Shown in pieces: positions 9,940 through 44,331 of a DNA stretch of 64,000 nucleotides (positions are counted from its first letter, which is position 1; every line of letters starts with the position of its first letter). A program made the position numbers and the translations under genes. Under the pieces are notes generated by a model. The model had not been told where the DNA came from and searched no databases. It saw only the letters and a list, made by a program, of their open reading frames with translations. The DNA lies in the NCBI RefSeq assembly GCF_024171955.1, contig NZ_JAMTCS010000002.1, forward strand, positions 359,300 to 423,299, read 5' to 3'. This DNA comes from Promicromonospora thailandica (lineage in GTDB: Bacteria > Actinomycetota > Actinomycetes > Actinomycetales > Cellulomonadaceae).

Positions 9940-10022
9940 GAAGTAGAACCGCAGCGAGATAGAACTGCAGCGAGATAGAACTGCAGCCGAGCTGCGGTTC
10001 TATCTCGCTGCAGTTCTACTTC
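9940..10022. repeat. 16-nt inverted/direct repeat array A (3 direct + 2 inverted units)
   Basis: Direct units start at 9940, 9956 and 9972 (GAAGTAGAACCGCAGC, then GAGATAGAACTGCAGC twice). A 3-nt spacer follows, then inverted units at 9991 and 10007. The array fills the convergent gap between the Gfo/Idh gene and the AEC carrier gene and can fold into a long hairpin. TAG triplets of the three direct units fall in three different frames. See arrays at 19538 and 44184. Confidence 0.9.
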
Positions 10023-10043
10023 GGCACGGCGACAGCGGCTGCG

Positions 10044-11081
10044 TCATGCCAGCAGGGCGCCGATCGTGACCAGCACCGGCACGCACAGCGCCGTCGTCCA
10101 GACCGTCGCCCGCGCCGCGACCCCGTCGAACACCCCGTAGCGCGTCGCGTACGTGGTGACGTTCACCGCCGTGGGCAGCGCCGCCATCGTCACCACGAGG
10201 GCCAGCGCCGTGCCGTCCAGGCCCAGGGCCGAGCCCAGCGCCCACGCCCCCAGCGGGTGCAGCAGGTTGCGCACCAGCACCGCGAGCACGATCACCCGGC
10301 CCACCAGGCCCCGGCCCCGGGATGCGGCGGTGCCGAGGTCGGCGTCGGCGGGCGGCAGCGGCACCGCGAGCGTCATGCCGAACGTCAGCAGGCCCAGGGG
10401 CGGTGCGGCGGCGCCGATCAGGTCGAAGGGCAGCAGCACGACGTCGGGCAGGCGCGCCCCCGTCAGCTCGCTCACGACCGCGACGAGCAGGCCGGCCACG
10501 GTGCCGACGGTGATCGGGTTGCGGAACGCCGCGAGGAACACCTGCCCCATCGACCGCCACCCCGACGGCGCGTGCCCGCCCGGAGCCGCACCGGTCGCGC
10601 GGTCCAGCGCCGAGAGGGCCAGCGGCGCCAGCACCAGGAGCTGGAAGAGGAGGGTCGGCACCACGGCGAGCGCGTCGTCGAACAAGTAGACGGCCAGCGG
10701 GATACCGATGTTGCCGCCGTTCACGTAGACCGCGGCCAGCGTGGTCACGGCCGCGGGACCGCCTGGCAGGCGCAGGAGCCACCGCGCCACGACGGCACTG
10801 GCCAGGCCGAGCACCGCGGTCGTGACCCACGTGACCACGGCGCCGCGCGACAGCACGTGCGCCAGGTCCGTCGAGGCGAGCGTGCTGAACATCAGGGCCG
10901 GGGCGCAGATCGTGAACGACAGCGTGGCCAGCACCTGGCGCGCCCCGGCCCCGCCGTCGCCCCCGCCGGGCCGTGCCGGGCGCGGCAGGCCGCGGCCCGC
11001 CAGGAGCCCCGTCCGCTGGACCACCCAGCCGAGCGCGACCACACAGGCCATGGATCCGATGGCGGTCAGGACGGGCAGCAC
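10044..11081 (-). CDS. AEC-family (auxin efflux carrier-like) transporter
   Basis: 345-aa integral membrane protein with about ten hydrophobic segments and the AEC family hallmark NGGNIGIPLAVYLF near residue 120, plus PTAVNVTTYATRYG near the C-terminus. AEC carriers export or import small organic acids (malate, malonate and similar) in bacteria. It lies 24 bp downstream of the Gfo/Idh gene and appears to be the third gene of the leftward LacI-DUF6807 / dehydrogenase / AEC operon, suggesting movement of an acid intermediate of the sugar-acid pathway. Its own substrate is not readable from sequence. Confidence 0.85.
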   Translation of the reverse strand: MLPVLTAIGSMACVVALGWVVQRTGLLAGRGLPRPARPGGGDGGAGARQVLATLSFTICAPALMFSTLASTDLAHVLSRGAVVTWVTTAVLGLASAVVARWLLRLPGGPAAVTTLAAVYVNGGNIGIPLAVYLFDDALAVVPTLLFQLLVLAPLALSALDRATGAAPGGHAPSGWRSMGQVFLAAFRNPITVGTVAGLLVAVVSELTGARLPDVVLLPFDLIGAAAPPLGLLTFGMTLAVPLPPADADLGTAASRGRGLVGRVIVLAVLVRNLLHPLGAWALGSALGLDGTALALVVTMAALPTAVNVTTYATRYGVFDGVAARATVWTTALCVPVLVTIGALLA

Positions 11082-11105
11082 CTCAGCACCCTCCCACGGT
11101 GCGGG

Positions 11106-12251
11106 TCACCGGGGCGGGGCTGTCCACGGAGCGCCCAGCTCGGTGAACGTGCGCTGCTCGCACGCGGCGCGCTCGCACCACGCGGCCACGTCCCGGACCA
11201 CCGGGTGCCGCGTGTCGCCCTCGGGATTACCTTGCCCGACGCCGGCCTCGGCCCACCGCACGAACTCGTCGGCGATCGGAGCCGGGTCGGGCGCCGTCCG
11301 GACCGCCTCGAGCACGCGCATGAACGCCCCGGTGTCGCGCACGTCGCACAGCAACGGCTCGCCCGTGCGCGCCCGCAGCAGGTTCTCCAGCAGGCCCGTG
11401 CGCCCGTAGCGCTTCTCGGCCGTGCCCCGCCCGGTACGCAGCCGCACCACGTCGTTCTCGTACTCCAGCTCGATCTCGCCCGCGGTGCCCCGCACCACCA
11501 CCCGGGCGGGGGTGCGCTCCGCGGCGCAGAGGGTGAGCCCGAACCCGTACCGGGTCCCGTCCGTGCCGACCACCCGCAGCGACGAGGTGTCGTCCGCCTC
11601 GATCGGGTTGGCGCGCCACAGGTCCGGGTGCACGGAGGCGACGTCGTCCGCGGTGCGCGCGCCGCCCACCCGGAGCGCGGAGGCGACGGCGTGCGCAAGG
11701 GGGTTGGTCACCACGCCGTCGACCACCGCACGGTCGCCCAGGCGCCGCCGGCCCGCCCAGGGCGAGCGGGTCCAGTACGCGGCGGTCCGCACCCACGTGC
11801 CGACGGCGCCGATGCCGGTCACCTGCCCGATCTCACCGCGTGCGACCAGGTCGGCGACGGTGGGCAGCGCGTGCGACCCGAAGGTCTGGAAGCCCACCTG
11901 GCACAGCCTCCCCGTCCGCTCCGTCACGGCGACGAGCTCGGCGTGCTCCGCGAGCGAGGCCGTGGTCGGCTTCTCCAGCAGCACGTCGATGCCGGCCTCC
12001 AGGGCGGCCCGTGCCAGCGGCAGGTGCGTGTGGATCGGTGTGGCGAGCACGACGACGTCGGGCAGCCCCGTGTCCGCCGAGAGCAGGTCGCCGAGGCTCG
12101 CGAACCACGGCGCCGGGGCGGCGGCCGGCTCCCTCGGGTCGACGACGGCGCTCAGCCGCGCCAGTCCCCGCTGCTCCAGCTCGGCGACCGCGCGCAGGTG
12201 CGACCCGCCGTGCCCGTGGATGCCGACCACGGCGACCCGCGCGGGTGTCAC
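11106..12251 (-). CDS. Gfo/Idh/MocA-family oxidoreductase (sugar-acid locus)
   Basis: 381 aa from a GTG at 12251 that overlaps the upstream stop as GTGA, so translation is coupled to the LacI-DUF6807 gene. N-terminal Rossmann motif VAVVGIHGHGGSH (residues 6-18), LLEKPTT near 97 and the family C-terminal beta domain (VVRGTAGEIELEYEND). A large open frame extends far upstream in this register but is antisense composition only. Probably an NAD(P)-dependent dehydrogenase for the sugar or sugar acid imported by the divergent ABC system; substrate not assigned. Confidence 0.86.
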   Translation of the reverse strand: MTPARVAVVGIHGHGGSHLRAVAELEQRGLARLSAVVDPREPAAAPAPWFASLGDLLSADTGLPDVVVLATPIHTHLPLARAALEAGIDVLLEKPTTASLAEHAELVAVTERTGRLCQVGFQTFGSHALPTVADLVARGEIGQVTGIGAVGTWVRTAAYWTRSPWAGRRRLGDRAVVDGVVTNPLAHAVASALRVGGARTADDVASVHPDLWRANPIEADDTSSLRVVGTDGTRYGFGLTLCAAERTPARVVVRGTAGEIELEYENDVVRLRTGRGTAEKRYGRTGLLENLLRARTGEPLLCDVRDTGAFMRVLEAVRTAPDPAPIADEFVRWAEAGVGQGNPEGDTRHPVVRDVAAWCERAACEQRTFTELGAPWTAPPR

Positions 12252-14320
12252 CGGCGTACACCGCCTGACGCGTCCCCGCCCGCGGCCACGCCCTCGTCCG
12301 GCAGGCCGCCGTCGGTGAGACCCGCTGCGAGCTCCGTCGCCGCCGTGGCGGTCAGCGCGCTGTCGAGCAGCACGGCCACGAGGTCGAGCCGCGTGGCGCC
12401 GCCGTCGGGCACGAGGAGCGGTGCGTCCCAGGCGAGCGCCGGGCAGGCGCCCGGGTACTCCGCGGAGCGCAGGAACCAGGGTCGCACCTGCCCCGGCTGC
12501 ACGAGCAGGAGCGTCGTGGACCGGCCGCCCTGCCGCTGCACGAACGCCACCCACGGCGAGGTGCTGCCGTGCGCCCGGGTCTCGCCCGTGCCCGCCGCGG
12601 ACAGGACGGTGGTGCTCTCGGCGATCGGCAGCCGCCAGAACAGCCCGCCGTAGCCCGCGCCCGGACGGCCGTTCGTGGCGGGGGAGCGGATCTCCAGGGG
12701 GCCGTGGTCGGCGTGCAGCGTGGAGCGCCAGTCGAGCACCCAGCCGGGGGCGGCGTCGGACCCGGGCCTCGGGGGGAGCAGCCGGGCGGTCACGCGCCGT
12801 TCCTCGCGGAGCTGCGGAGCGCCGTGCTCGTCGGACCAGATCACGTCCTCGACGAGCGTCCGGCCCGCCCCGGGGTCGTCGGTGCCCTCGATGCGCACCC
12901 CCGTGGAGGTCTGCCGGCCGTGGTTCTTGAGCAGCGTCGGGCCCACGTCCTCGATGAAGGTGCGGCCACCCCAGTAGCTGGTGCCGTTCACGTCCGGCAC
13001 CGCGATGCCGACGCCGTAGTGGTGCCGGTGGTCCACCGGGCTCACGTCCGTGAGCGGTACCCCCGCGAGCGTGTGCACGGGGTGCAGGTAGGGCCGGCGG
13101 GCGTGCACCTGGGGCATGCGGTCGCCGGTGTCGTGGCGGGCCAGCTCGAGCCCGTCGCCGCAGGTCAGCACAATCGCGTCGGCCCCGGTGCCGGTAGGGA
13201 GCACCCAGGTGGGTGCCGCGGCGGGGATCTCCTCCGGTGGGGGGACGACGGCGTCGTCGTCGGTCACGTGCACGCGTTCCGGGCCCTGGGGCACGGGGCC
13301 GGTGCTGCCGCGCACCTCCAGGCTCGGGGTGAACCGCGCGGAGCGTGCGGGGTGGGCGTCGTCGTCGATCACGGCGTGCAGCTCCCTCCAGGCGTGCCGG
13401 CCGAGCTCGGCCTGGGGTACGGCCACGGTCGTCAGGGCGGGTGTGGCGTAGCGGGACAGCTCGATGTCGTCGAACCCCGCGACCGAGATGTCGGCGGGTA
13501 CGGCGACCCCTGCCTCGTTCAGGCCCGCGAGCAGGCCGAACGCGACCAGGTCGTTGAAGGCCACCGCGGCGGTGGCGCGTGTCGCCAGGACGGCGGGCGC
13601 CGCGGCGTGGCCCGCCTGGATGTCCGGCCCGGCGGGCAGGTCGAGGATCTCCAGGTCGGGGTGCTGCGCGCGGGCGCGGGCCAGCCCGGCGCGGCGCAGC
13701 TCGTCGGACGCGCTGCGCACGGGCCCGCCGAGGTACACGATGCGCCGGTGCCCGAGCGCCACGAGGTGCTCGACCACCTGGAGCGCGGCGTCCTCGTAGT
13801 CGACGACGAGGCTGGGCGCGGCGCCACCGGCGTCGCGGTTGACCAGCACGACCGGCTCGACGTCGGCCACGAGCGCGCTCAGCTCGGCGTCCCCGATGCG
13901 GGGCGAGACCAGCACGAGGGCGTCGCAGCGCAGCCGGGCCTCCAGCGCGATGGCGCCCTCCTGCTGGTCGTCCTCGACGGTGTCGGCGACGAGCACGCGG
14001 TACCCGTCCTCGGCAGCGCCGGCCATGACGCCGCGCAGGATCTGCTGGAACACGGGATTGCCCAGGTCGGGCACCACGAGGGCCACCGTCTGGGTGCGGC
14101 CGAGCGCCAGGCTGCGCGCCGCGTTGCTGGGGCGGTAGCTCAGCTCCGCCGCCACGTCGCGCACGCGTTCCGCGATGGCGGCGTCGACGGTGCTCCGGCC
14201 GTTCATGACGCGGGAGACGGTCGCGCGCGACACCCCGGCCGCTGCGGCGACGTCCCCGATCGTGGCGACGGCGCGGCGCTGCCCCGCGCGCTGACCGTCC
14301 CGTGGGCTGCGGCTCACCAT
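12248..14320 (-). CDS. LacI-type regulator fused to DUF6807 (PmoA-like) domain
   Basis: 690 aa from the ATG at 14320 (CGGAG site 8 bp before; a GTG at 14338 is the alternative). Residues about 15-65 are a LacI HTH (TIGDVAAAAGVSRATVSRVMNG), about 70-345 the periplasmic-binding-like sugar domain (ends RSARFTPSLEVRGS). A 30-residue linker leads to a DUF6807/PmoA-family domain (about 360-670; HRHHYGVGIAVPDVNG, GYGGLFWRLP, WFLRSAEYPG). DUF6807 proteins are usually separate and occur beside Gfo/Idh genes; their activity is unknown to me. The fusion would put a potential catabolic domain on the repressor. First gene of the leftward operon, facing three ACCGGT sites. Confidence 0.85.
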   Translation of the reverse strand: MVSRSPRDGQRAGQRRAVATIGDVAAAAGVSRATVSRVMNGRSTVDAAIAERVRDVAAELSYRPSNAARSLALGRTQTVALVVPDLGNPVFQQILRGVMAGAAEDGYRVLVADTVEDDQQEGAIALEARLRCDALVLVSPRIGDAELSALVADVEPVVLVNRDAGGAAPSLVVDYEDAALQVVEHLVALGHRRIVYLGGPVRSASDELRRAGLARARAQHPDLEILDLPAGPDIQAGHAAAPAVLATRATAAVAFNDLVAFGLLAGLNEAGVAVPADISVAGFDDIELSRYATPALTTVAVPQAELGRHAWRELHAVIDDDAHPARSARFTPSLEVRGSTGPVPQGPERVHVTDDDAVVPPPEEIPAAAPTWVLPTGTGADAIVLTCGDGLELARHDTGDRMPQVHARRPYLHPVHTLAGVPLTDVSPVDHRHHYGVGIAVPDVNGTSYWGGRTFIEDVGPTLLKNHGRQTSTGVRIEGTDDPGAGRTLVEDVIWSDEHGAPQLREERRVTARLLPPRPGSDAAPGWVLDWRSTLHADHGPLEIRSPATNGRPGAGYGGLFWRLPIAESTTVLSAAGTGETRAHGSTSPWVAFVQRQGGRSTTLLLVQPGQVRPWFLRSAEYPGACPALAWDAPLLVPDGGATRLDLVAVLLDSALTATAATELAAGLTDGGLPDEGVAAGGDASGGVRR

Positions 14321-14392
14321 TCGCACTCCGTCCGTCACCTGACCCGGTACCCGGGCAGGCCTCGCGCCCTCGTTGGCGCGGCGGCCGGCGGT

Positions 14393-14472
14393 ACCGGTTT
14401 CCCGAGGTGACCGTACACCATGGGAAACCGGTTCCTCCTGTGGTACGTTCCTGCCCCAGAGACCGGTTTCTC
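14393..14472. promoter_or_regulatory. Three ACCGGT-centred LacI operators in the divergent promoter
   Basis: Sites at 14393-14403 (ACCGGTTTCCC), 14422-14435 (GGGAAACCGGTTCC) and 14461-14472 (GACCGGTTTCTC) are partial copies of a common GGGAAACCGGTTTCCC palindrome, 30-40 bp apart. They lie between the LacI-DUF6807 gene and the ABC operon. Position and symmetry point to binding by that LacI protein and control of both directions. Confidence 0.65.
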
Positions 14473-14515
14473 ATGGACGAGGCCGGGGATCGACGACGAT
14501 CCGGAGGACACCGCG

Positions 14516-14596
14516 ATGCGCCAGCCGAACCGCGAGCCCGGACCCTGGTGGTCCGCGCCCCCGCCCGTCCGGACGGGGGTGCACCCGTGTCGGTGA
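14516..14596 (+). CDS. Possible 26-codon leader ORF coupled to ABC permease
   Basis: An ATG at 14516 with a good GGAGGA site 5-8 bp upstream opens a 26-codon frame (begins MRQPNREPGPWW, Pro/Trp-rich). It ends in TGA at 14594-14596. That stop overlaps GTG at 14593 (GTGA), one of the two candidate permease starts, the same coupling geometry used elsewhere in this window. The permease itself has no comparably strong ribosome site. No homologue is known to me, and the frame could be a translational entry device instead of a functional peptide. Confidence 0.4.
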   Translation: MRQPNREPGPWWSAPPPVRTGVHPCR

Positions 14597-15522
14597 TCCA
14601 GGAGCTGTCCCGCGACCGCCGGTCCCGTGACCAGGGCGTCAGCCCGCGCAGAAAGGGCGACGGGCGCTGGGCGCTGTTCTTCCTCGCGCCCTGGTTCGTG
14701 GGGCTGGTGCTCATCACGGCCGGGCCCATGGGCGCGTCGCTGTACCTGTCGTTCACGGACTACGACCTGCTCTCCGCACCGCAGTGGGTGGGGTTCGAGA
14801 ACTTCACCCGGATGTTCGAGGACCCGCGCTTCCTCGGCTCCCTGGGCGTCACGTTCACCTACGTGTTCGTGTCGGTGCCGCTGCAGCTCGCCGCGGCGCT
14901 GGGCCTGGCGCTGCTGCTCGACAAGGGCATGCGCGGCCTGGCCCTGTACCGGTCCGTGTACTACCTGCCCTCCCTGCTCGGCGGGTCGGTCGCCATCGCC
15001 ATCCTGTGGCGGCAGATCTTCGGCGCGGACGGCCTGGTCAACCAGGTCCTGGCGCTGTTCGGCGTGCAGGGCCAGGGCTGGGTGTCGCACCCCGACTACG
15101 CGCTCGGCACCCTCATGGCGCTCAACGTCTGGACGTTCGGCGCGCCGATGGTGATCTTCCTGGCGGGCCTGCGCCAGATCCCGCGCATGTACTACGAGGC
15201 GGCGGCGATCGACGGCGCGGGCCGGTGGCGGCAGTTCCGTTCCATCACGCTGCCCCTGCTCACGCCGATCGTGTTCTTCAACCTCGTGCTGCAGCTCATC
15301 GAGGCGTTCCAGTCGTTCACGCGGGCGTTCGTCGTCAGCGGGGGCAACGGCGGACCGTCCGACTCGACGCTGCTCTACACGCTGTACCTCTACCTCAAGG
15401 GGTTCGGCTCCCTCGACATGGGCTACGCCTCGGCGATGGCCTGGTTCCTGCTGCTGATCATCGGCGGCATGACGGTCGTCAACTTCCTCGCCTCCAAGTA
15501 CTGGGTCTTCTACGATGACTGA
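14587..15522 (+). CDS. Sugar ABC transporter permease (MalF-type)
   Basis: About 311 aa (GTG at 14587, or GTG at 14593 coupled to the leader frame). Six hydrophobic segments beginning ALFFLAPWFVGLVLI, and the permease EAA loop YYEAAAIDGAGRWRQF near residue 205, which contacts the ATPase. Partner of the next permease, which it overlaps by 8 bp, and of the binding lipoprotein at 16509. No ATPase gene is present, so a shared MsiK-type ATPase is presumed. The downstream uxaA suggests import of a hexuronate or uronate oligomer. Confidence 0.92.
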   Translation: MSVIQELSRDRRSRDQGVSPRRKGDGRWALFFLAPWFVGLVLITAGPMGASLYLSFTDYDLLSAPQWVGFENFTRMFEDPRFLGSLGVTFTYVFVSVPLQLAAALGLALLLDKGMRGLALYRSVYYLPSLLGGSVAIAILWRQIFGADGLVNQVLALFGVQGQGWVSHPDYALGTLMALNVWTFGAPMVIFLAGLRQIPRMYYEAAAIDGAGRWRQFRSITLPLLTPIVFFNLVLQLIEAFQSFTRAFVVSGGNGGPSDSTLLYTLYLYLKGFGSLDMGYASAMAWFLLLIIGGMTVVNFLASKYWVFYDD

Positions 15523-16471
15523 CGCCTCGACACAGACCGCCTCGACGTCCCGGCCCGCGCCGGCGGTACGGACGGCGACGCCGTCGTCGGCCCGCCGTGC
15601 GCCAGGGGAACCGCGGCCCGTGCGGCCGCGGGGGCCGCGGCTGCGCGCCCGGATCGGCAGCGTGCTCAAGCACGCGGGCCTCATCGCCCTCGGGTTCGTG
15701 ATGCTCTACCCGCTGCTGTGGATGGTGGCCAGCTCGTTCAAGCCGAACGCGCTGATCTTCCGCGAGCCCGGGCTGATCCCCACCGAGATCGACCTGACCA
15801 ACTACACCGACGGCTGGAACGCGCTGCTGCACCCGTTCAGCCACTACCTGATCAACTCGGCGATCGTGGTGCTGGGGTCGCTGCTCGGCAACCTGCTGTC
15901 GTGCTCGATGGCGGCGTACGCCTTCGCGCGGCTGGAGTTCCGCGGCCGGCGGTTGTGGTTCGCCGTCATGCTGATGTCGATCATGCTGCCGATCCACGTG
16001 GTGATCGTGCCGCAGTACGTGCTGTTCTCCCAGCTCGAGTGGATCAACACGTTCCTGCCGCTGATCGTGCCGAAGCTGCTGGCCACGGACGCGTTCTTCA
16101 TCTTCCTCATGGTCCAGTTCTTCCGGGGCATCCCCCGGGAGCTCGACGAGGCGGCCACGCTCGACGGCGCCAACCACCTGCGCGTCTACCTGCAGATCAT
16201 GCTGCCGCTGTCGCTGCCGGCCCTCGCCACCACGGCGATCTTCACGTTCATCTGGACGTGGAACGACTTCTTCAGCCAGCTCATCTTCCTCACGCGGCCC
16301 GAGATGTACACCGTGCCGATCGCGTTGCGCACGTTCGTCGACGCCACGGGCGAGAGCTCGTGGGGGTCGCTGTTCGCGATGTCGATCGTGTCGCTCGTCC
16401 CCGTCTTCATCGCCTTCCTGTTCGGCCAGAAATACCTGGTCAAGGGCATTGCCACGACCGGCATCAAGTAA
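15515..16471 (+). CDS. Sugar ABC transporter permease (MalG-type)
   Basis: 318 aa, ATG overlapping the preceding gene by 8 bp. A 45-residue Ala/Pro/Arg-rich cytoplasmic leader precedes six membrane segments (IALGFVMLYPLLWMVASSF first). The EAA motif is LDEAATLDGANHLRVYL near residue 210. Second half of the heterodimeric pore of this importer. Confidence 0.92.
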   Translation: MTDASTQTASTSRPAPAVRTATPSSARRAPGEPRPVRPRGPRLRARIGSVLKHAGLIALGFVMLYPLLWMVASSFKPNALIFREPGLIPTEIDLTNYTDGWNALLHPFSHYLINSAIVVLGSLLGNLLSCSMAAYAFARLEFRGRRLWFAVMLMSIMLPIHVVIVPQYVLFSQLEWINTFLPLIVPKLLATDAFFIFLMVQFFRGIPRELDEAATLDGANHLRVYLQIMLPLSLPALATTAIFTFIWTWNDFFSQLIFLTRPEMYTVPIALRTFVDATGESSWGSLFAMSIVSLVPVFIAFLFGQKYLVKGIATTGIK

Positions 16472-16508
16472 CGCCCCGCGACAACGACGTCACCCGAAGG
16501 AGAAGCAC

Positions 16509-17855
16509 ATGCGCATCACCCGTACCGGACGACCCTCAGGGCGTGGCAGGAGGCTCGTCGCCCCGGCCGCGGGCGTCGCCGCGCTCGCCCTCACCCTCGC
16601 CGCCTGCGGCGGCGGGGACTCGGGCCTGGGCGGGGGCGGCGACGAGCCGCCCGCCGCGCAGGAGTGCCCCTGCGAGATCCGGTTCGCGTGGTGGGGGTCC
16701 GACACCCGCCACGAGTCCACGCAGCAGATCATCGAGGCGTTCGAGGCCGAGAACCCGGACATCACCGTGGTGCCGGACTTCACCGACTGGGACGGCTACT
16801 GGGACAAGCTCGCGACCTCCGTGGCCGCCGGCGACACCCCGGACGTCATCACCCAGGAGGAGCGCTACATCTCGGACTACTCGACCAAGAACGTGCTGGC
16901 CGACCTGGGCGCCCTCGACATCGACACGTCGAAGATCGACGACGGCGTGCTGGGTGGCGGCCAGATCGACGGCACGCAGTACGGCATCCCCACGGGCATC
17001 AACGCGTACGCCATGGTCGCGGACCCGGAGCTGTTCGCGGAGGCCGGCGTCGACGTGCCGGACGACGCGACCTGGACGTGGGAGGACTACGTCAGCACGG
17101 CGAACGCCGTCGCGAAGGGTGCAGGCGACGGCGTCTGGGGCACGCAGGACTACGGCTTCAACGAGGCGGGCCTCAACGTGCTGGCGCGCCAGCGCGGCGA
17201 GACGCTCTTCACGCCCGAGGGCGAGCTCGGCGTCTCCGAGGAGACCGTGGCCGACTTCTTCCAGGTCTCGCTCGACCTGATGGCGGGTGGGGGCCAGCCC
17301 GACGCCGCGCGCACCGTGGAGTACCAGGCGGCCGGGCCGGAGGGCGGCCTGCTCGGCACCAACCAGGGCGCCATGGGCATCTGGTGGACCAACCAGCTCG
17401 GCGCGCTGACCGAGTCGTCGGGCCACGAGCTCGAGCTGCTGCGCCTGCCCGGCGAGGCGGAGGGCGAGCGTACCGGCATGTACTACAAGCCGGCGATGTT
17501 CTACTCCGTCTCGGCGGACACGCAGTACCCGCAGGCCGCGGCGAAGTTCGTGGACTTCCTGCTGAACTCCGAGGAGGCGGCGAAGATCATGCTGACCGAC
17601 CGCGGCCTCCCGGCGAACACCGAGGTGCGCGAGGCGATCCTGGACGACCTCTCGCCGACCGACCAGAAGGTGGCCGACTTCATGGCGGACATCGAGGACG
17701 AGATCGTGGACACCCCGCCGGTGCCGCCGCACGGCTCGGCCGAGCTGGCCGACATCATGGAGCGCATCAACACCGAGGTGCTCTTCGAGCGCATCACCCC
17801 GCAGGAGGCCGCGACCCAGCTCATCGAGGAGGTCACGGCGGCCACGTCCTCCTGA
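16509..17855 (+). CDS. Sugar ABC transporter substrate-binding lipoprotein
   Basis: 448 aa from the ATG at 16509, preceded by GAAGGAGA. Lipoprotein signal peptide with Arg-rich n-region and lipobox LAAC, Cys33 being the lipid anchor, then a Gly-rich flexible stretch. The mature part is an extracellular-solute-binding protein of the sugar (family 1) type: IRFAWWGSDTRHE start, DTPDVITQEERYI, GIWWTNQLGALTE and MYYKPAMFY. It captures the substrate outside the membrane for the two permeases upstream. Substrate predicted as a uronic acid or uronate oligomer only from the neighbouring uxaA. Confidence 0.92.
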   Translation: MRITRTGRPSGRGRRLVAPAAGVAALALTLAACGGGDSGLGGGGDEPPAAQECPCEIRFAWWGSDTRHESTQQIIEAFEAENPDITVVPDFTDWDGYWDKLATSVAAGDTPDVITQEERYISDYSTKNVLADLGALDIDTSKIDDGVLGGGQIDGTQYGIPTGINAYAMVADPELFAEAGVDVPDDATWTWEDYVSTANAVAKGAGDGVWGTQDYGFNEAGLNVLARQRGETLFTPEGELGVSEETVADFFQVSLDLMAGGGQPDAARTVEYQAAGPEGGLLGTNQGAMGIWWTNQLGALTESSGHELELLRLPGEAEGERTGMYYKPAMFYSVSADTQYPQAAAKFVDFLLNSEEAAKIMLTDRGLPANTEVREAILDDLSPTDQKVADFMADIEDEIVDTPPVPPHGSAELADIMERINTEVLFERITPQEAATQLIEEVTAATSS

Positions 17856-17862
17856 CCCCGTC

Positions 17863-17896
17863 CGACCCCCTTGCGCCCCTCGGCGCAGGGGGGTCG
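17863..17896 (+). terminator. Hairpin between binding-protein gene and uxaA
   Basis: 15-bp stem (17863-17877 with 17882-17896, one G-U pair) and a 4-nt loop, directly after the binding-protein stop and without a U-tract. It may partially terminate or protect the ABC mRNA so that uxaA is expressed at another level. Confidence 0.6.
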
Positions 17897-17901
17897 TAGG
17901 A

Positions 17902-17913
17902 TGAAACGGTTCA
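17902..17913. promoter_or_regulatory. Candidate operator before uxaA
   Basis: TGAAACGGTTCA, symmetric in its outer four bases on each side, 11 bp upstream of the uxaA start. It resembles the GAAACCGGTTTC sites at 14393-14472 but is one base shorter at the centre, so it may be a weak site of the same regulator or belong to another one. Confidence 0.35.
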
Positions 17914-17923
17914 AAGAGGAGAG

Positions 17924-19531
17924 GTGCCAGAGGTGACACAGGATCTGCTCGTGCTCCGGGAGGGCGACGACGTCGCCGTCGCCACGCGGGACCTCGGCCC
18001 GGGGGACCAGGCCACGGTCCCCGGCGCCGGCCCGGTCGCCGTCGGGCAGCCGGTGCCACGCGGGCACAAGGTCGCCCTGCGGGCCGTCCCCGCCGGCGGG
18101 CAGGTGCACAAGTACGGGCAGGTCATCGGGGTCGCCACCGCCGACATCGCGCCCGGCGACCACGTGCACGCGCACAACCTGGGCTTCGAGGAGGGCGACC
18201 GTGAGGCGCCGCTCGGCGGCACGCACACCGACCTCACGGTGCCCGACGACGAGCCCCGGCCCACCTTCCGCGGCTACCGCAGGGCCGACGGGCGGGTGGG
18301 CACCCGCAACGTCGTCGCGATCCTGACCAGCGTGAACTGCTCGGCGTCCACCGCGAAGATGATCGCCGACCAGTTCCGGGGCACGGTCCTGGACGAGTTC
18401 GAGAACGTCGACGGCGTCATCGCCCTGACCCATACCTCGGGCTGCGGCCTGGTGCCCGACTCCGAGGGCGGCCAGGTGCTGCTCCGCACCCTGCGCGGGT
18501 ACGCCGCCCACCCGAACGTCGCCGGCCTCCTCGTGCTGGGCCTGGGCTGCGAGATGGTGCCGGGCGCGGCGCTGTCGGCGCGCTCGGGCCAGGTGGCCGA
18601 CCTCGGCATGCCCACGGTCGGCCCGCCCGACGACGCGAAGCAGGGCCTGCTCGCCGCGATCCCCGACGACACGGTCGTGCGGAGCCTGACCATCCAGGAG
18701 ACCGGCGGCGTGCGGGCCTCGGTGCGGGCCGGCGTCGCCGCCGTCCGCGAGATGCTGCCGTTGGTGAACGCGCGCGAGCGGGTCGAGTGCGACGTGTCCG
18801 AGCTGGTGCTCGCCCTGAACTGCGGCGGGTCGGACGGCTACTCCGGCATCACCGCCAACCCCGCCCTCGGCTGGGCCTCGGACCGGCTGGTCGCCTACGG
18901 CGCCACGTCCGTGCTGGCCGAGACGCCCGAGGTCTACGGAGCCGAGCACCTGCTCACGGCCCGCGCGACCGGGCCGGCGGTGGCCAAGAAGCTGCTGGAC
19001 CGCATCGACTGGTGGCGCGACTACGTCCGCGCGGGCGGGGGCACGCTGGACAACAACCCGTCGCCCGGCAACAAGGCCGGCGGCCTGACGACCATCCTGG
19101 AGAAGTCCCTCGGCGCGGTTGCCAAGGGCGGCCAGGCCGACCTCGGCGCCGTGTACGAGTACGCCGAACCGATCACCGAGCGCGGGTTCGGCTTCATGGA
19201 CACCCCGGGCTACGACCCCGTGTCGGTGACGGGGCTGGTGGCGGGCGGCGCCAACGTCGTCGTCTTCACCACGGGCCGCGGGTCGGTCTTCGGGTGCCGC
19301 CCCACGCCGTCGATCAAGGTCGCGACCAACACGCCGATGTACTCGGTGATGTCCGAGGACATGGACCTGAACGCGGGCGTGATCGTGGACGGCACGGCGA
19401 CCGTGGCCGAGGTGGGCCGGCAGATCTTCGACCGCATCCTCGCGGTCGCCTCGGGGGAGCGGACGGTCAGCGAGGAGCTCGAGATCGGTGCCGAGGAGTT
19501 CATCCCGTGGCACCTGGGCGCGGTCACCTGA
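17924..19531 (+). CDS. uxaA: Altronate dehydratase (UxaA family)
   Basis: 535 aa from GTG at 17924 (GTG at 17933 has better spacing to GAGGAG and is the alternative). N-terminal SAF-type substrate-binding domain (about 1-100) followed by the large catalytic domain (about 115-535) with GTRNVVAILTSVNCSAS, THTSGCGL, LALNCGGSDGYSG and NPSPGNKAGG, the conserved parts of UxaA/GarD dehydratases. It converts D-altronate to 2-keto-3-deoxygluconate in the galacturonate branch of hexuronate catabolism. Family members also act on galactarate or other sugar acids, so the substrate is probable and not proven. Isomerase, KDG kinase and aldolase genes are not in the window. Confidence 0.88.
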   Translation: MPEVTQDLLVLREGDDVAVATRDLGPGDQATVPGAGPVAVGQPVPRGHKVALRAVPAGGQVHKYGQVIGVATADIAPGDHVHAHNLGFEEGDREAPLGGTHTDLTVPDDEPRPTFRGYRRADGRVGTRNVVAILTSVNCSASTAKMIADQFRGTVLDEFENVDGVIALTHTSGCGLVPDSEGGQVLLRTLRGYAAHPNVAGLLVLGLGCEMVPGAALSARSGQVADLGMPTVGPPDDAKQGLLAAIPDDTVVRSLTIQETGGVRASVRAGVAAVREMLPLVNARERVECDVSELVLALNCGGSDGYSGITANPALGWASDRLVAYGATSVLAETPEVYGAEHLLTARATGPAVAKKLLDRIDWWRDYVRAGGGTLDNNPSPGNKAGGLTTILEKSLGAVAKGGQADLGAVYEYAEPITERGFGFMDTPGYDPVSVTGLVAGGANVVVFTTGRGSVFGCRPTPSIKVATNTPMYSVMSEDMDLNAGVIVDGTATVAEVGRQIFDRILAVASGERTVSEELEIGAEEFIPWHLGAVT

Positions 19532-19537
19532 CCCCGC

Positions 19538-19667
19538 GAGATAGAACTGTGGCGAGATAGAACCAGGGCGAAGTAGAACCCCCGCGAAGTAGAACCGTAG
19601 CGAGATAGAACCGCAGGTAGCTGCGGTTCTATCTCGCTGCGGTTCTATCTCGCCCTGGTTCTACTTC
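19538..19667. repeat. 16-nt inverted/direct repeat array B (5 direct + 3 inverted units)
   Basis: Direct units start at 19538, 19554, 19570, 19586 and 19602, all of the form GARRTAGAACYNNNNN. After a short loop come inverted units at 19620, 19636 and 19652. It fills the convergent gap between uxaA and the beta-helix protein gene. The outer units differ in positions 3-4 (AG, GA) and in the last five bases, while TAGAAC is invariant. Confidence 0.9.
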
Positions 19668-19679
19668 GCGGGGGTGGGG

Positions 19680-21902
19680 TTATGGGTAGGTCACCACCTT
19701 TGCCGGGATCGTTTCCGTCCCGCTTGCCCGCGGGCCGACGCCGTTGATGACGTGCTCGTACGTGCCCACGCCGCCCAGCGACACCGTGAGCAGCGAGTGC
19801 ATCCGCACGCCGGGCGTGACCGGCACCTCGAAGCCGTTGTCGGAGGTGATCGACGCGTCCGACGTGAACACGCAGTACGACCCCAGACCCCAGGCCTCGT
19901 GCTGCGTCACACCGTCCGCGACCTTGTAGGCGGCCCACCCGCGGATCCCGTCGTGGTTCCACGCCGCCTGGTTCGGCGGGTCGTACGGCAGCTCGTTCTG
20001 GTAGAAGATCGTGCGGCCGCGCTCCCCGGTCCACAGGGTGTTGTACTGCTGGTAGTGCTCGACGAAGAGGCCGTACCCGTCCACGTCGTCGCCGTTCACG
20101 ACCAGGCCGTTGCGCGCCCGGTTCACGTCCCAGCCGACGCCGTCGCCGTGGTCGCCGCGCCATGACCAGATGTGGTCGACGATCGTGTCGTCCGCGTTCA
20201 CGACGATCGCCTGGTCCACCCGGCCGACGTGCGCCCCGCCCACGCGCACGAACACGTCGTGCAGCGAGATCGGGTCGTCCGCGTGGTCCGCCGTCGACCC
20301 CGCCGTGCCCACGGTGAGCATCGAGGGCGACTCCGTGGCGCCGGCGTCGAACAGCACGCCCGCCACACGGACGCCGTCGACGTCGCCCACCCGCATCGCC
20401 GTCTGCCCGGCCGTCGGCACGATCGTGGCGTAACCGAGCCCGAGCACGACGGTGTCGGCGCGGTCCACCTCGATGGTCCCCGTCGTCTCGTAGACGCCCG
20501 GCGTGAGCAGCAGGTGCAGGCCCTGGTCCAGTGCCGCGTTGATCCGCTCGGCGGAGTCGCCGGGGCGGGCCACGTAGAACCGGTCCAGCGGGATCGAGGT
20601 GCCCGACGTCGTCCCGCCGTCCCACGTCGCACCCCGCGTCCCGGACCGTGCCGACGGTACGAACACCGCGTAGTCGTCCCCGTCGAGGTACAGGTACGGC
20701 TTCTCCCGGATGGTGCCCGTGGTGTCGAGCGTGGTCACGGCGGGTTCGGGGAACGACGTCGGCGGCGCGTTCTCGGTGCCGGAGAACACCATGTTCCACA
20801 GGGTCCCGGCCCAGCCGCCCGTGAGCGTCGAGTCGCGGGTGTACCACTGCTGCTGCGTCCAGGCGCGGACCTCGCCGTCGACCACGGAGTCGGCGATGTA
20901 CCCGCCCGACGCCCAGCCGTACCGCGACGAGTGCAGCATGAGATTGCCGCGCACGTGCACGCGGCGCATCGGCGCGGCCTGGGAGACCGCCCACCGCATG
21001 TCGCCGCCCGACGGCGTCACCGCGAGGTTCTCGACCGAACGCCAGAAGTTCTGCGTGGCGTTGCCCTCGAACCACTCGGCGTCGGCCCAGACGCCGCCCG
21101 TGATGTTCACGTCGTCGGGTCGCGCACCGAGGCCGGAGATCGCGGTGTGGAACCCGGCGTTGACGTGCACGGGGTAGGTACCGGGCTCGAACAGGAGCTG
21201 GTGCCGCCCGTCGCCGAACTGGTCGGCCTCCTGCTGGTCGTAGACGGCGTCGACGGTGGCCTGGACCTGGTCGGCCGGCGTGTCCGGGCCGAACACGTGC
21301 ACGTTGGGCCCGAGGTCACCGCCGCCCGGGATCGGGTCGCCGGGGTCGGTGGAGCCCTGACCCGTGAACACCTTCAGCTCGAACAGCGAGTAGCCGTACC
21401 CCGTGCCGCGCTCGGTGCCGGTCAGCCGCACGTGCCGGCCGGAGCCCCCGACGTCGAGCGACTGCGTACCGCCCGTGCCGTTCGTGACGGTCGCGAGCGT
21501 GCGCCACGTGGCGCCGTCGTCGGACGCCTCGACCCGGAAAGCCTTGCCGTACGCGGCCTCCCACACGAGCTCGACGCCGCACAGGTCCTGCACGGAGCCG
21601 AGGTCCACCCGGATCCACTGGGGGTCCGAGTGCTCGCTGCCCCAGCGCGTGCCCGGGTCGCCGTCGACCGCCAGCGCCGCGCCGAACGGGCCCTCGGTGG
21701 ACGACGCGGTCGCCGTCCGCCCGAGCGCCGCGTTCGCGGTGCCGCACGCGGCGACCGCGGCCGCCGCGCCCGACGGCGCCGCTGCCGCCGCCGACACCGC
21801 CGACGGCGCCGCTGCCGCCGCCGTCAGCGGCGCCGCCACGCAGGCGGTGACCGCCGCGACGGCCAGCCAGGCACGGCCGGCCGTGGACGGGGCCGTCCTC
21901 AC
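19680..21902 (-). CDS. Secreted F5/8 type C + parallel beta-helix (pectate-lyase-like) protein
   Basis: 740 aa from a GTG at 21902 overlapping the upstream stop (GTGA). Signal peptide about 1-35, then an Ala/Pro low-complexity stretch, an F5/8 type C (CBM32-like) domain (about 55-195: GDPGTRWGSEHSDPQWIRVDLG to YGYSLFELKVF) and a long repetitive domain (about 215-740) starting GPNVHVFGPDTPADQVQATVDAVYDQQ. The latter has right-handed beta-helix character (ITGGVWADAEWF, VENLAVTPSGGDMRW, VNADDTIVDHIWSWRGDHGD). Relatives are often annotated as coagulation-factor 5/8 or, misleadingly, adenylyl cyclase proteins and recall GH55-type helices. Probably a polysaccharide-active enzyme; linkage unknown. 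Confidence 0.75.
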   Translation of the reverse strand: MRTAPSTAGRAWLAVAAVTACVAAPLTAAAAAPSAVSAAAAAPSGAAAAVAACGTANAALGRTATASSTEGPFGAALAVDGDPGTRWGSEHSDPQWIRVDLGSVQDLCGVELVWEAAYGKAFRVEASDDGATWRTLATVTNGTGGTQSLDVGGSGRHVRLTGTERGTGYGYSLFELKVFTGQGSTDPGDPIPGGGDLGPNVHVFGPDTPADQVQATVDAVYDQQEADQFGDGRHQLLFEPGTYPVHVNAGFHTAISGLGARPDDVNITGGVWADAEWFEGNATQNFWRSVENLAVTPSGGDMRWAVSQAAPMRRVHVRGNLMLHSSRYGWASGGYIADSVVDGEVRAWTQQQWYTRDSTLTGGWAGTLWNMVFSGTENAPPTSFPEPAVTTLDTTGTIREKPYLYLDGDDYAVFVPSARSGTRGATWDGGTTSGTSIPLDRFYVARPGDSAERINAALDQGLHLLLTPGVYETTGTIEVDRADTVVLGLGYATIVPTAGQTAMRVGDVDGVRVAGVLFDAGATESPSMLTVGTAGSTADHADDPISLHDVFVRVGGAHVGRVDQAIVVNADDTIVDHIWSWRGDHGDGVGWDVNRARNGLVVNGDDVDGYGLFVEHYQQYNTLWTGERGRTIFYQNELPYDPPNQAAWNHDGIRGWAAYKVADGVTQHEAWGLGSYCVFTSDASITSDNGFEVPVTPGVRMHSLLTVSLGGVGTYEHVINGVGPRASGTETIPAKVVTYP

Positions 21903-23335: not shown

Positions 23336-23376
23336 GGTTCCTCCTTCGATAGTGGTGGTGTGCCGTGCTGACCCGG

Positions 23377-40371: not shown

Positions 40372-40386
40372 TTCACGTATTGTGAA
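40372..40386. promoter_or_regulatory. Palindrome in pckG/ScfR divergent spacer
   Basis: TTCAC-GTATT-GTGAA, perfect 5-bp arms, in a locally AT-rich part of the 193-bp spacer, 73 bp from the regulator start and 107 bp from pckG. It does not match the corynebacterial RamB core AACTTTGCAAA, so either the site has diverged or another factor binds. Confidence 0.5.
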
Positions 40387-40458
40387 GGAGCGGATTCCTG
40401 CTGGGCCGTCCCGGGTGCGCCCGGGTGACGGCCGTCACACCACCGGACGGAGGGCGAC

Positions 40459-41931: not shown

Positions 41932-41986
41932 CCCCAGCACGCTGTCGCCGCGTCGTCGGCCCGGCTCCGGGTTAGCGTAGGCAACC

Positions 41987-42661
41987 GTGGCATCGAATCT
42001 GGCTTGCATCGGACTGAACGTCTGGCGACGCAGCGACTTCCGCGACATGGTCGCGGCGGCCCGCTCGGAGGCGGAGACCATCGCGAAGGACGGCGAGGTC
42101 GGCGTGCACATCTGGACCGACCCGTCCGGCGCGCGCCTGGTCATCACCACCGAGGGCGACCTGGTGCGCGTCGTCACGCCCACGTTCTACGCCGCGCCCG
42201 GCGCCGTCATGTCCGAGCCGCAGGCGGTCGACGGCGGCCTCGTGCTCGCCGAGCTCGTCAACGACCAGGACGAGGTGATCACCGAGATCGCCTGCCAGCT
42301 CGAGGAGCTCTCCCTGCTCGGGGCGGCGGTGCCGCCCATCGAGGCGCCCGTGTCGGTGGTGGTGCTCGGCAACGCCGTCCGCGTCACCGGCCGGTCCGAC
42401 GGCGTCCCGCCCGGCCTGGTCTTCGAGCCCGTCGGGGCCTACGCCGCCTCGACCGACGCGACCGCGCACCTGACCGGCGTGGTGGTGGCCGTCGAGGAGC
42501 GCACCGTCGGCCGCACCGGCCAGGGCTTCACGGCCGCGCGCGTGCAGACCGACGGCTTCCAGGTCACCCTCTGCGTCCCGGCCGGGGAACCGCACCTCGC
42601 GGCGGGCGACGTCGTCGACGTCGAGGGCTACGTCGTGGGGTCCATCCCGTCGCTGCGCTGA
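41987..42661 (+). CDS. Conserved hypothetical cytoplasmic protein
   Basis: 224 aa from GTG at 41987. No signal peptide or membrane helix. The sequence is acidic and beta-rich, with two regions: 1-125 (VGVHIWTDPSGARLVITTEGDLVRVVTPTF) and 130-224, which repeats short Val-rich strands (VSVVVLGNAVRVTG, HLTGVVVAVEERTVG, VVDVEGYVVGSIPSL) compatible with an OB-like fold. Codon use and composition match its neighbours, so it is a real resident gene. I do not recognise a family. Confidence 0.7.
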   Translation: MASNLACIGLNVWRRSDFRDMVAAARSEAETIAKDGEVGVHIWTDPSGARLVITTEGDLVRVVTPTFYAAPGAVMSEPQAVDGGLVLAELVNDQDEVITEIACQLEELSLLGAAVPPIEAPVSVVVLGNAVRVTGRSDGVPPGLVFEPVGAYAASTDATAHLTGVVVAVEERTVGRTGQGFTAARVQTDGFQVTLCVPAGEPHLAAGDVVDVEGYVVGSIPSLR

Positions 42662-42785
42662 GCCGCGGGCCCCGACCGCAGGGCTGCGGGAATCACTGAT
42701 GACAGGGGGCGCGGCGCGCTGGTGTGATGGCGTCCGGCCCGCACGACCACGGCCGGTCCGGATCGCCCCGAGGAAGGTCCCGCCG

Positions 42786-44171
42786 ATGAGAGCCTCCCGA
42801 CGTCCGTCCGCCGTCGTCGCCTCCGTGGTCGCCGGCATGCTGACGGCGGCCGCCGTCGGCGCACCGCCGGCCCTGGCCGCGTCCGCCGGGCAGGAGCTGC
42901 CGCCCGCCGGGGTCTACTACCTGCAGAGCGCCACGACCGGCCTGAACGCGGCCGACGCCGGGGGCGCCGTCGAGCAGCACCGGCCCCAGGGCGACGAGGA
43001 CCACCAGCAGTGGTCGCTGCGCACGGGGGCGACCACCGTGCTGGAGAGCACGGACACCGCGGGCCGCTGCCTGGGTCGCTCCGGCGACCAGGCGGTGACC
43101 GTCGGGTGCGGGGAGCCGGGCGCGGCCTGGGAGCTCGTCGACCTCGGTGCCGACCGGTACCGGGTCCAGGTGCCGGGAACCGAGCGCTACCTCGCCGTCG
43201 GGCCGCGGCCGGGCGGGGCGAACTACCCGGACCGGCTGGTGCTCGGCGGCGGCGACGGGCTCGCGGCGTGGTACCTGACCCCGGTGGGCCCGGTGACCCG
43301 CCCGATGCCGCCCGCCGACCGCCGCACGCTCGACCAGATGTCGTTCCTCACGGCGCACAACGCGTACGCGAACGGGGTGGACGGCGGCTTCGCGCCGCCG
43401 TTCGTGAACCTCGCGCCCAACCAGGTGCGCGGCATCGAGCAGCAGCTCGCGGACGGCGTGCGCGGGTTCCAGCTCGACATCCACCAGACGCCCGACGGCG
43501 CCATCCTCTGCCACAACAGCTGCACCCTGGTCAGCCGGCCCGTGGCGCTGTGGGTGGACCTCCAGCGCATCGTCGACTTCCTGCGGGCACACCCCGACCA
43601 GTTCGTCACGGTGTTCCTGGAGGACTACGTCGAGCCGGCGGTGCTGCGCGCCGAGCTCGACCGCGTGACCGGCCTGGCGGACGTGCTCTACCGGCCCGAC
43701 CGCACCGGCGTCCGCGAGCAGGGCTGGCCCACCATGGCGCAGCTCGTCGCGGAGAACGACCGCCTGCTGATCCTCAGCGACCACAGCCGGTCGGCCGACG
43801 AGGCCGCGGGGCTGACCCGGGAGAGCTTCGGCGTGCTGTACCAGCGGGAGTGGACGGTGGAGAACTACTGGTCGATGGGTCCGGGCATCGGCACCTCCGA
43901 CTGGTCGTGCTGGAGCCGCTGGTACGACGCGGGCACGAACATCCCGCTGACGGAGCCCGGCACCGGGTTCCGTCCGCTGTTCGTGATGAACCACTTCCGC
44001 GACGTGCCGGTCGAGGTGACGGCGCGGACGGACAACGAGCGGCTGCTGGACCGGACCCAGCGGTTCTGCCAGCCGGCGGCCCGCAAGAAGCCGAACTTCC
44101 TCGCGGTCGACCGCTACGACGTCGGCGACCCGTTCGCGGCGCTGCGCACGCTGAACACGTACACCTACTGA
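42786..44171 (+). CDS. Secreted phosphatidylinositol-specific phospholipase C-like protein
   Basis: 461 aa from ATG at 42786 (GAGGAAGG site). Signal peptide to about 32 (ALAAS), an N-terminal module (about 38-165) with ricin/beta-trefoil character (GVYYLQSATTGLNAADAGG, DHQQWSLRTG, RYLAVG), and a PI-PLC X-type TIM barrel (about 180-460). Catalytic candidates: His191 in LTAHNAY, Asp231/His233 in LDIHQ and His243 in LCHNSC. C-terminus VDRYDVGDPFAALRTLNTY is typical. It would cleave phosphoinositide-like or glycosyl-inositol phospholipids outside the cell. Ends in the convergent repeat array at 44184. Confidence 0.87.
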   Translation: MRASRRPSAVVASVVAGMLTAAAVGAPPALAASAGQELPPAGVYYLQSATTGLNAADAGGAVEQHRPQGDEDHQQWSLRTGATTVLESTDTAGRCLGRSGDQAVTVGCGEPGAAWELVDLGADRYRVQVPGTERYLAVGPRPGGANYPDRLVLGGGDGLAAWYLTPVGPVTRPMPPADRRTLDQMSFLTAHNAYANGVDGGFAPPFVNLAPNQVRGIEQQLADGVRGFQLDIHQTPDGAILCHNSCTLVSRPVALWVDLQRIVDFLRAHPDQFVTVFLEDYVEPAVLRAELDRVTGLADVLYRPDRTGVREQGWPTMAQLVAENDRLLILSDHSRSADEAAGLTRESFGVLYQREWTVENYWSMGPGIGTSDWSCWSRWYDAGTNIPLTEPGTGFRPLFVMNHFRDVPVEVTARTDNERLLDRTQRFCQPAARKKPNFLAVDRYDVGDPFAALRTLNTYTY

Positions 44172-44183
44172 CCCCGCCGCGCC

Positions 44184-44331
44184 GAAGTAGAACCAGGGCG
44201 AGATAGAACCGCAGCGAGATAGAACCGCAGCGAGGTAGAACCCCAGCGAGGTAGAACCGCAGCGGGAGCTGCGGTTCTACTTCGCCCTGGTTCTACTTCG
44301 CCCTGGTTCTACCTCGCCCTGGTTCTACCTC
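44184..44331. repeat. 16-nt inverted/direct repeat array C (5 direct + 4 inverted units)
   Basis: Direct units start at 44184, 44200, 44216, 44232 and 44248; after GGGA, inverted units start at 44268, 44284, 44300 and 44316. Units follow GARRTAGAACCNNNNN with last five bases AGGGC, GCAGC or CCAGC. The last inverted unit contains CTA at 44325-44327, which is the TAG stop of the leftward hydrolase gene, so the array overlaps coding sequence. Largest member of the family with 9940 and 19538. Confidence 0.92.

What the first reader, a model, noticed from the sequence alone, without database searches (positions are those of the whole stretch)
9940..44331. Family of 16-nt-unit arrays placed in three convergent gene ends
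Arrays at 9940-10022, 19538-19667 and 44184-44331 use the same unit GARRTAGAACYNNNNN. Each array has direct copies first, then inverted copies, giving a nested hairpin. All three lie exactly between convergent genes (Gfo/Idh and AEC; uxaA and beta-helix protein; PI-PLC and hydrolase). No copy was found in codirectional or divergent spacers. Unit number differs (3+2, 5+3, 5+4), so arrays appear to grow or shrink by whole units. Seen directly in sequence; a role as dedicated gene-end element is inference.
Basis: partly seen in the sequence, partly recalled or inferred. Interest (0 to 1): 0.82.

Follow-up and report, generated by a model that had tools for sequence, protein, structure and literature searches.

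The report
Stacked hairpin repeats at gene ends
In some soil bacteria of the genus Promicromonospora, a 16-letter repeat is stacked into long hairpins placed just after stop codons, probably as two-way signals that end genes, although no RNA experiment has yet tested this.

Summary
The three arrays are real and belong to a genome-wide family. I examined 45 arrays in the host genome: 33 lie between convergent genes, 12 between codirectional genes, none between divergent genes and none inside a called gene. In each, direct copies come first and inverted copies follow. Of 81 neighbouring gene 3' ends, 77 lie within -23 to +26 nt of the outer unit. It is thus a 3'-end element, not a convergent-only one. 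Tandem units were found in 10 of 13 genomes of the genus and in no other of 221 family genomes. At six orthologous sites in 12 relatives, 48 of 53 intact spacers keep a strong hairpin, mostly of other sequence. So the hairpin is conserved and the repeat is exchangeable. Best reading: bidirectional 3'-end hairpins, probably terminators, enlarged by a REP-like repeat. Each unit carries TAG at period 16, so three units block all three frames; 14 of 81 gene ends use an array TAG. Selection for that is not shown: the neighbouring CGA is equally conserved. No RAYT transposase; no Rfam match in the window. Termination is untested.

The parts
8517..9929 (+). Gfo/Idh/MocA oxidoreductase gene ending in TGA 10 nt before array 1
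   Evidence: gene call, distance, Pfam
9940..9982 (+). array 1, direct arm: 3 units
   Evidence: exact matches; sequence
9996..10022 (-). array 1, inverted arm: 2 units; the stretch 9983-9995 lies between the arms
   Evidence: exact matches; fold
10044..11081 (-). AEC/Mem_trans family transporter gene, convergent, ends 21 nt after array 1
17933..19531 (+). altronate/galactarate dehydratase-like gene (uxaA-like), ends 6 nt before array 2
19538..19612 (+). array 2, direct arm: 5 units
19625..19667 (-). array 2, inverted arm: 3 units
   Evidence: fold
19680..21902 (-). gene with F5/8 type C domains, convergent, ends 12 nt after array 2
42699..44171 (+). gene of unsettled function (sub-threshold RicinB_lectin_2), ends 12 nt before array 3
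   Evidence: frame, distance, Pfam
44184..44258 (+). array 3, direct arm: 5 units
44273..44331 (-). array 3, inverted arm: 4 units; the outermost unit supplies the TAG stop (44325-44327) of the right-hand gene
44325..45629 (-). alpha/beta hydrolase gene whose reading frame ends at the TAG of the array's outermost inverted unit

Best explanation
The arrays are bidirectional 3'-end hairpins, most likely factor-independent transcription terminators that also protect mRNA 3' ends. They are built from a genus-restricted 16-nt repeat, SCGARRTAG + dialect triplet (AAC or TCA) + four variable bases. Direct copies followed by inverted copies make a stem of about 55 pairs that can form in RNA from either strand. 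The selected feature is the hairpin at the gene end. The repeat collects around gene-end hairpins by whole units, and is replaced or decays without loss of the hairpin. Two by-products of the unit may make it well tolerated there. TAG recurs every 16 nt, so three units stop translation in all frames from either side. In the AAC dialect, the inverted unit (GTTCTAYYTC) follows the inner hairpin as a T-rich tail. Shown here: architecture, placement, hairpins kept at orthologous gene ends, whole-unit variation, use of the array's TAG as a stop codon. Inferred: that RNA polymerase stops there; that units were added around older core hairpins (suggested by sites C and D); how units spread.
For: 45 arrays: 33 convergent, 12 codirectional, 0 divergent, 0 inside called genes (L101 moved to codirectional because its left neighbour is tRNA-Leu). 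Convergent against other spacers p about 5e-18; no divergent array although divergent spacers hold 30% of spacer bases, p about 2e-7. 77 of 81 adjacent 3' ends within -23 to +26 nt. 282 of 288 exact GARRTAGAAC in 844 kb lie in arrays and the other 6 are inside genes, so no solitary spacer copies there. Orthologous spacers: 48 of 53 intact ones keep a hairpin at z <= -4, mostly of other sequence families. Non-array convergent spacers of the same genome fold at least 15 kcal/mol better than one shuffled copy in 46% of 41, against 1% of 89 divergent. The two arms of an array agree at variable sites, 0.70 counted from the inside against 0.45 between random arrays; a permutation test of the outside register (0.62) gave 0 of 2000. 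Hairpin plus >= 5 T of 8 occurs in 73% of 63 array strand-spacers against 5% of 60 other convergent hairpins.
Against: No RNA data. The T-rich tail is not general: 0 of 30 strands in the TCA dialect and 26% of 58 in P. panici/soli/sukumoe loci reach 5 T of 8. At site D the core hairpin stays in G461, G462 and G466 while the units have decayed, so the units are not essential there. Four of 13 genomes have no AAC tandem pair and three have no pair of either dialect. Five of 53 intact orthologous spacers have no strong hairpin, and the six sites were chosen because G000 has arrays there. Outside G000 the anchoring is looser: 8 of 97 3' ends lie outside -29 to +39 nt and 2 of 23 in the TCA set lie 97 and 132 nt away. 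Avoidance of genes and promoters by a selfish repeat could give part of the placement.
Confidence: 0.62

Rival explanations
1. A selfish, REP-like mobile repeat without function of its own: it inserts or is copied by an unknown enzyme, and survives only downstream of stop codons because elsewhere it would break genes or promoters.
For: Genus-restricted, 0 to 243 tandem pairs per species; two dialects that do not follow the species tree (G460 is sister to G000 with full support but carries TCA; G461/G462, also TCA, lie elsewhere); units decay at site D while the core stays; codirectional arrays show it is not tied to convergent pairs.
Against: No RAYT (PF01797) in any of 13 genomes; no solitary spacer copies in the 844 kb examined; in codirectional spacers of G000 the arrays sit next to the upstream stop codon even when the spacer is long (e.g. 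17 nt from the stop and 449 nt from the next start), which mere avoidance does not predict; the arms co-vary.
Confidence: 0.25
2. A combined transcription and translation stop: the 16-nt period (one base more than a multiple of 3) and the TAG are kept by selection so that any frame entering the array from either side ends within three units, keeping ribosomes out of the hairpin.
For: TAG kept in 40 of 41 units of the TCA set while the next triplet is TCA in 28 of 41 (p 0.0007); 108 of 110 against 97 of 110 in P. panici/soli/sukumoe (p 0.006); 14 of 81 gene ends in G000 use an array TAG, 11 at the first unit, 3 at the second, 0 at the third (p 0.001); 18 of 97 listed 3' ends in other species stop in the first unit.
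Against: With slots not chosen for TAG, positions CGA are about as conserved as TAG in every dialect, and in G000 so is AAC, so the constraint is not specific to the stop codon; 28 of 92 arm slots, two of them the empty arms of the split array, have fewer than three units; most genes (67 of 81) keep their own stop.
Confidence: 0.2
3. Binding-site clusters for a DNA-binding protein (nucleoid or recombination factor), with gene ends merely the permitted place.
For: Conserved CGARRTAG block at fixed 16-nt spacing and a dialect switch, as expected for a binder and its site.
Against: In G000 units never occur alone in the spacers examined and always form inward inverted arms; orthologous sites without units mostly keep hairpins.
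Confidence: 0.07
4. DNA uptake sequences doubling as terminators, as in Neisseria and Pasteurellaceae.
For: Inverted pairs of a short motif at gene 3' ends, as described for those genera (PMC1852404, passages seen).
Against: In Neisseria uptake sequences are mostly not in hairpins and many are intragenic (PMC1852404 Table 4); here 282 of 288 copies in the sample are in about 45 arrays and the other six look like chance matches in genes. Competence was not examined.
Confidence: 0.02

Closest known systems
REP / BIME elements (repetitive extragenic palindromes, GTAG and CGTC families; PMC3733652, passages seen; BIME order from PMC2817692, passages seen)
   Same: Multi-copy palindromic repeats, mostly extragenic, mainly between convergent and unidirectional genes and downstream of coding regions; grouped in opposite orientations that can fold together; suggested roles in termination and mRNA stability.
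   Different: Unit is not itself a palindrome; direct-then-inverted order rather than alternating; 16-nt period without spacer DNA; no RAYT in 13 of 13 genomes; no solitary copies in the spacers examined.
Uptake-sequence hairpin terminators of Neisseria and Pasteurellaceae (PMC1852404, passages seen)
   Same: A short repeated motif in inverted pairs supplies gene-end hairpins, enriched in tail-to-tail spacers.
   Different: No scattered single copies in the spacers examined; tandem multi-unit arms; no evidence of uptake.
TAACTGA direct repeats of marine Beggiatoaceae (PMC4679880, passages seen)
   Same: Tandem, mostly intergenic repeats whose period is one more than a multiple of 3, giving stop codons in all three frames; some overlap gene ends.
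   Different: Heptamer, in most sets oriented toward a downstream gene; one inverted repeat among 170 sets, so not a mirrored hairpin family.
Hairpin terminators without U-tract and clustered hairpins (PMC8355165, passages seen)
   Same: Gene-end hairpins for which a U-tract is not always needed; clusters act together.
   Different: Here mostly one nested stem built from a repeat family and symmetric for both directions.

Membership tests
REP/BIME with RAYT | repeat unit is a short palindrome with an unpaired GTAG or CGTC tag at one end | tested here: not met
   units are non-palindromic 16-mers; hairpin only from inverted arms
REP/BIME with RAYT | REP-associated tyrosine transposase (Y1_Tnp, PF01797) in the genome | tested here: not met
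   0 of 13 genus genomes; 5 of 14 control genomes ring
REP/BIME with RAYT | extragenic, biased to convergent and unidirectional spacers, multi-copy | tested here: met
   33 convergent, 12 codirectional, 0 divergent of 45 arrays
intrinsic (rho-independent) terminator | GC-rich hairpin just after the stop codon | tested here: met
   44 arrays folded with flanks: median -106.8 and -105.2 kcal/mol on the two strands; 77 of 81 3' ends within -23 to +26 nt
intrinsic (rho-independent) terminator | U-rich tract after the stem | tested here: inconclusive
   73% of 63 strand-spacers in G000; 58% of 88 strands in G000, 26% of 58 in panici/soli/sukumoe, 42% of 24 in G465/G469, 0 of 30 in TCA species
intrinsic (rho-independent) terminator | transcripts end there | not testable with these tools
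   no RNA data
DNA uptake sequence | hundreds of dispersed single copies, also in genes | tested here: not met
   6 of 288 exact copies outside arrays, in 844 kb
known Rfam RNA family | covariance-model match above gathering score | tested here: not met
   0 in the window

The most novel reading that the evidence does not exclude
A separate class of bacterial repeat that lives on terminators. A 16-nt unit is repeatedly added around ancestral gene-end hairpins, in mirrored fashion on both arms, turning a simple terminator into a nested two-way stop for RNA polymerase and, through TAG at a frame-shifting period, for ribosomes in all frames. Two sequence dialects are exchanged at the same sites and spread genome-wide by a mechanism that does not use RAYT.
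Probability: 0.3. Interest if true: 0.75.

Novelty: new variant of a known kind. Interest (0 to 1): 0.52.

Why it matters
It offers a natural series of gene-end hairpins that differ by whole 16-nt units at the same gene pair in related species. That allows a direct test of how hairpin length, tail composition and in-frame stop codons set termination in high-GC actinobacteria, where many terminators lack a U-tract (recalled; in this genome 5% of 60 other convergent hairpins had one). It also shows different repeat families at the same gene ends in different species while a hairpin is kept, which bears on why REP-like repeats gather there.

Tried and rejected
Convergent-only placement: rejected, 12 of 45 arrays are codirectional.

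Stop codon as the single conserved feature: first supported, then weakened when slots were not chosen by TAG: CGA is as conserved.

Nested U-tail terminator as the general mechanism: strong in G000 but absent in the TCA dialect, so kept only as a dialect feature. A consensus scan of window 8000-24000 had pointed to it: 9 terminator-like sites against 2.0 in shuffles, 7 of them inside arrays 1 and 2.

RAYT-driven REP: no PF01797 in 13 genomes. Rfam family: none in the window.

Phage carriage: the single viral-contig hit (L075) has only direct copies of a different 16-mer and no inverted arm, in a contig with phage head genes. I judge it a chance match.

Dialect as a clade marker: rejected, TCA is polyphyletic on a tree of gene-end sequences.

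A first version of the unforced TAG tally had a coding error and found almost no units; one search replaces it. One search counts unit clusters of at least three units, two of which are halves of one split array (L177); 2 clusters at locus edges were dropped. One search dropped 1 edge cluster, and two of its arrays (L248, L249) are also (as L212, L184). tRNA neighbours were checked only for the window and the 40 G000 stretches; L259 lies beside a tRNA-like sequence (seen by eye) but is counted there as convergent.

Literature: searches, of which I saw the listings only, showed no description of this repeat in Promicromonospora in the open-licence library; subscription journals are largely not covered.
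Full report
Observation. All 22 exact copies of GARRTAGAACY in the window fall in them. Counting up to one mismatch there are 24 matches, against a shuffle mean of 0.85 and maximum of 4. Folding both strands gives -74 to -112 kcal/mol, z -11 to -15. No Rfam family reaches its gathering score in the window.

Genome-wide family. The window lies in G000:C2:359300-423299 of a 5.38 Mb genome. Tandem pairs of the unit occur 79 times forward and 72 times reverse, against 0 for the reversed control pattern. I fetched 38 stretches covering the listed arrays outside the window and two control stretches on contig C8, in which no array was found. With the window this is 844 kb, in which I called genes with a script of my own. 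One search lists all its 86 matches; one search lists 100 of 105, so an array or two on contigs from C14 onward may be missing. There are 45 arrays (46 clusters, one array being split). In all of them the direct arm comes first and the inverted arm second. By gene clusters are convergent and 11 codirectional. After merging the split array and moving L101, whose left neighbour is a tRNA-Leu gene, the count is 33 convergent, 12 codirectional, 0 divergent, 0 inside called genes. Background adjacent pairs are 121 convergent, 471 codirectional, 115 divergent. The stretches were chosen for arrays, so convergent spacers are if anything over-represented in the background. Enrichment p about 5e-18; absence from divergent spacers p about 2e-7 by length and 0.0008 by count.

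Anchoring to 3' ends. Of 81 gene 3' ends facing an array, 77 are within -23 to +26 nt of its outermost unit. The four exceptions are 58, 127, 1306 and 1313 nt; the 127 is the tRNA case and the last two are the split array. In the 12 codirectional spacers of G000 the array sits within 25 nt of the upstream gene's stop whatever the spacer length, up to 449 nt from the next start. 282 of 288 exact GARRTAGAAC lie in arrays; the six others are inside genes. Outside G000 the anchoring is looser: 89 of 97 ends within -29 to +39 nt, and 21 of 23 within -7 to +31 nt in the TCA set.

Other species. The pattern TAGAACN6GARRTAGAAC is found in 9 of 221 genomes of the family, all in the same genus, and the GARRTAGAACY pair in only the own genome of 297 sampled from the order. 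A scan of the GTDB collection for four units gave 29 stretches, all in Promicromonospora: 24 P. panici, 3 P. soli, 2 P. sukumoe. Contig lengths tie G464, G465 and G470 to these three, which is how the genus is named. A generic pattern with the triplet after TAG left free finds 10 of 13 genus genomes and no other of the 221. It reveals a second dialect, TAGTCA, in G460, G461 and, with few copies, G462. In 55 further unit clusters 42 are convergent, 13 codirectional, 0 divergent, with 50 of 55 strictly inward. In 16 arrays of the TCA species 7 are convergent, 9 codirectional, 0 divergent, with 14 of 16 strictly inward; two of these are also.

Orthologous sites. For six arrays of G000, chosen because arrays are there, I fetched the corresponding gene ends in 12 relatives. 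Of 72 ends examined 59 fold at z <= -4. Where the gene pair is intact with a spacer of at most 300 nt, 48 of 53 do. Most of these hairpins are not made of the 16-nt unit. They have other sequences, one of which (CCTAAGTTTCTTCGCTTTG-N8-palindrome) is itself a repeat family, with 90 exact copies in 6 of 13 genomes. At site C a nearly identical core hairpin is shared by G000, G460, G463, G466 and G470. It is flanked by AAC units in G000, by TCA units in its sister G460, and by no intact units in G463, G466 and G470. At site D the core is shared widely; arms are 4+3, 3+3, 2+2 and 2+2 in G000, G469, G464 and G465 (some units mutated), and decayed in G461, G462 and G466. Whole-unit change is therefore seen, the hairpin core is the more stable part at these two sites, and the units look exchangeable. 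A tree of about 4.4 kb of flanking coding DNA puts G460 beside G000 with support 1.0 and G461/G462 elsewhere, so dialects do not follow the species tree.

Unit anatomy. Slots tallied without requiring TAG show CGA-RR-TAG conserved in all dialects, the next triplet dialect-specific, and four variable bases. The arms agree at the variable sites: identity 0.70 counted from the inside and 0.62 from the outside, against 0.45 for random arrays; a permutation test on the outside register gave 0 of 2000. TAG at period 16 meets all three frames within three units; 64 of 92 arm slots have at least three. Fourteen of 81 gene ends use an array TAG, 11 in the first unit, 3 in the second, none in the third. 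At site C, 12 of 12 relatives end the same gene at another stop: TGA in ten, TAA in one, TAG in one; that TAG (G464) lies just outside the outermost unit (sequence). Against a specific role of TAG, CGA is as invariant.

Tail. In G000, a hairpin of at least 9 pairs followed by at least 5 T of 8 occurs in 73% of 63 array strand-spacers, against 5% of 60 other convergent hairpins. The tail is the next inverted unit. It is weaker in P. panici/soli/sukumoe loci (26% of 58 strands) and absent in the TCA set (0 of 30).

Reading. What is mostly kept across species is a strong hairpin right after the stop codon, which for a high-GC actinobacterium fits a terminator or a 3'-end stabiliser. The 16-nt repeat is one of several repeat sequences in the genus that furnish it. 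Similar placement is known for REP/BIME (PMC3733652), for uptake-sequence hairpins (PMC1852404) and for stem-loops in general (PMC1590033). A three-frame stop repeat is known in TAACTGA (PMC4679880). Of all these papers I saw passages only. The combination, a non-palindromic tandem unit mirrored around a gene-end hairpin with exchangeable dialects and no RAYT, I did not find described (listings of searches). Function in termination remains inference.

Noticed in passing
L084 9361-10708 (G000:C1 about 167060-168407): One array is split: its direct arm (3 units) and inverted arm (4 units) flank about 1.25 kb holding an open frame of 303 aa at 9676-10587 without Pfam or NCBIfam match; my gene caller did not call it.
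   Followed up: partly
L111 9619-9694; also G000:C15:33614, G000:C2:87991, G465:C2:258822: A second palindrome family in the same genome: 38-nt arms, 97% complementary, no loop.
   Followed up: partly
G463, G467, G468, G469, G470, G471 (L214-L218 and listed places): A palindrome CCTAAGTTTCTTCGCTTTG-N-CAAAGCGAAGAAACTTAGG with an 8-nt (once 9-nt, in the places listed) variable centre, 90 exact copies in 6 of 13 genomes, occupying site A in G463, G467, G469 and G470 where G000 has a 16-nt array.
   Followed up: partly
L075 507-565 and 1783-1809 (IMGVR_UViG_3300041097_000033): A phage contig has direct repeats CCCGAAGTAGAACTTA with the same 16-nt period but no inverted arm; probably coincidence.
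   Followed up: partly
L086 10000-10086: ARAGORN calls a tRNA-Thr inside an array hairpin; probably a false positive caused by the palindrome.
   Followed up: no
L220, L221, L224-L228, L231 (site E in eight relatives): Eight relatives have about 1.1 kb, perhaps an extra gene, between the gene pair that in G000, G462, G463, G469 and G470 is separated only by a hairpin spacer: gene ends with these hairpins may be sites of gene gain or loss.
   Followed up: no
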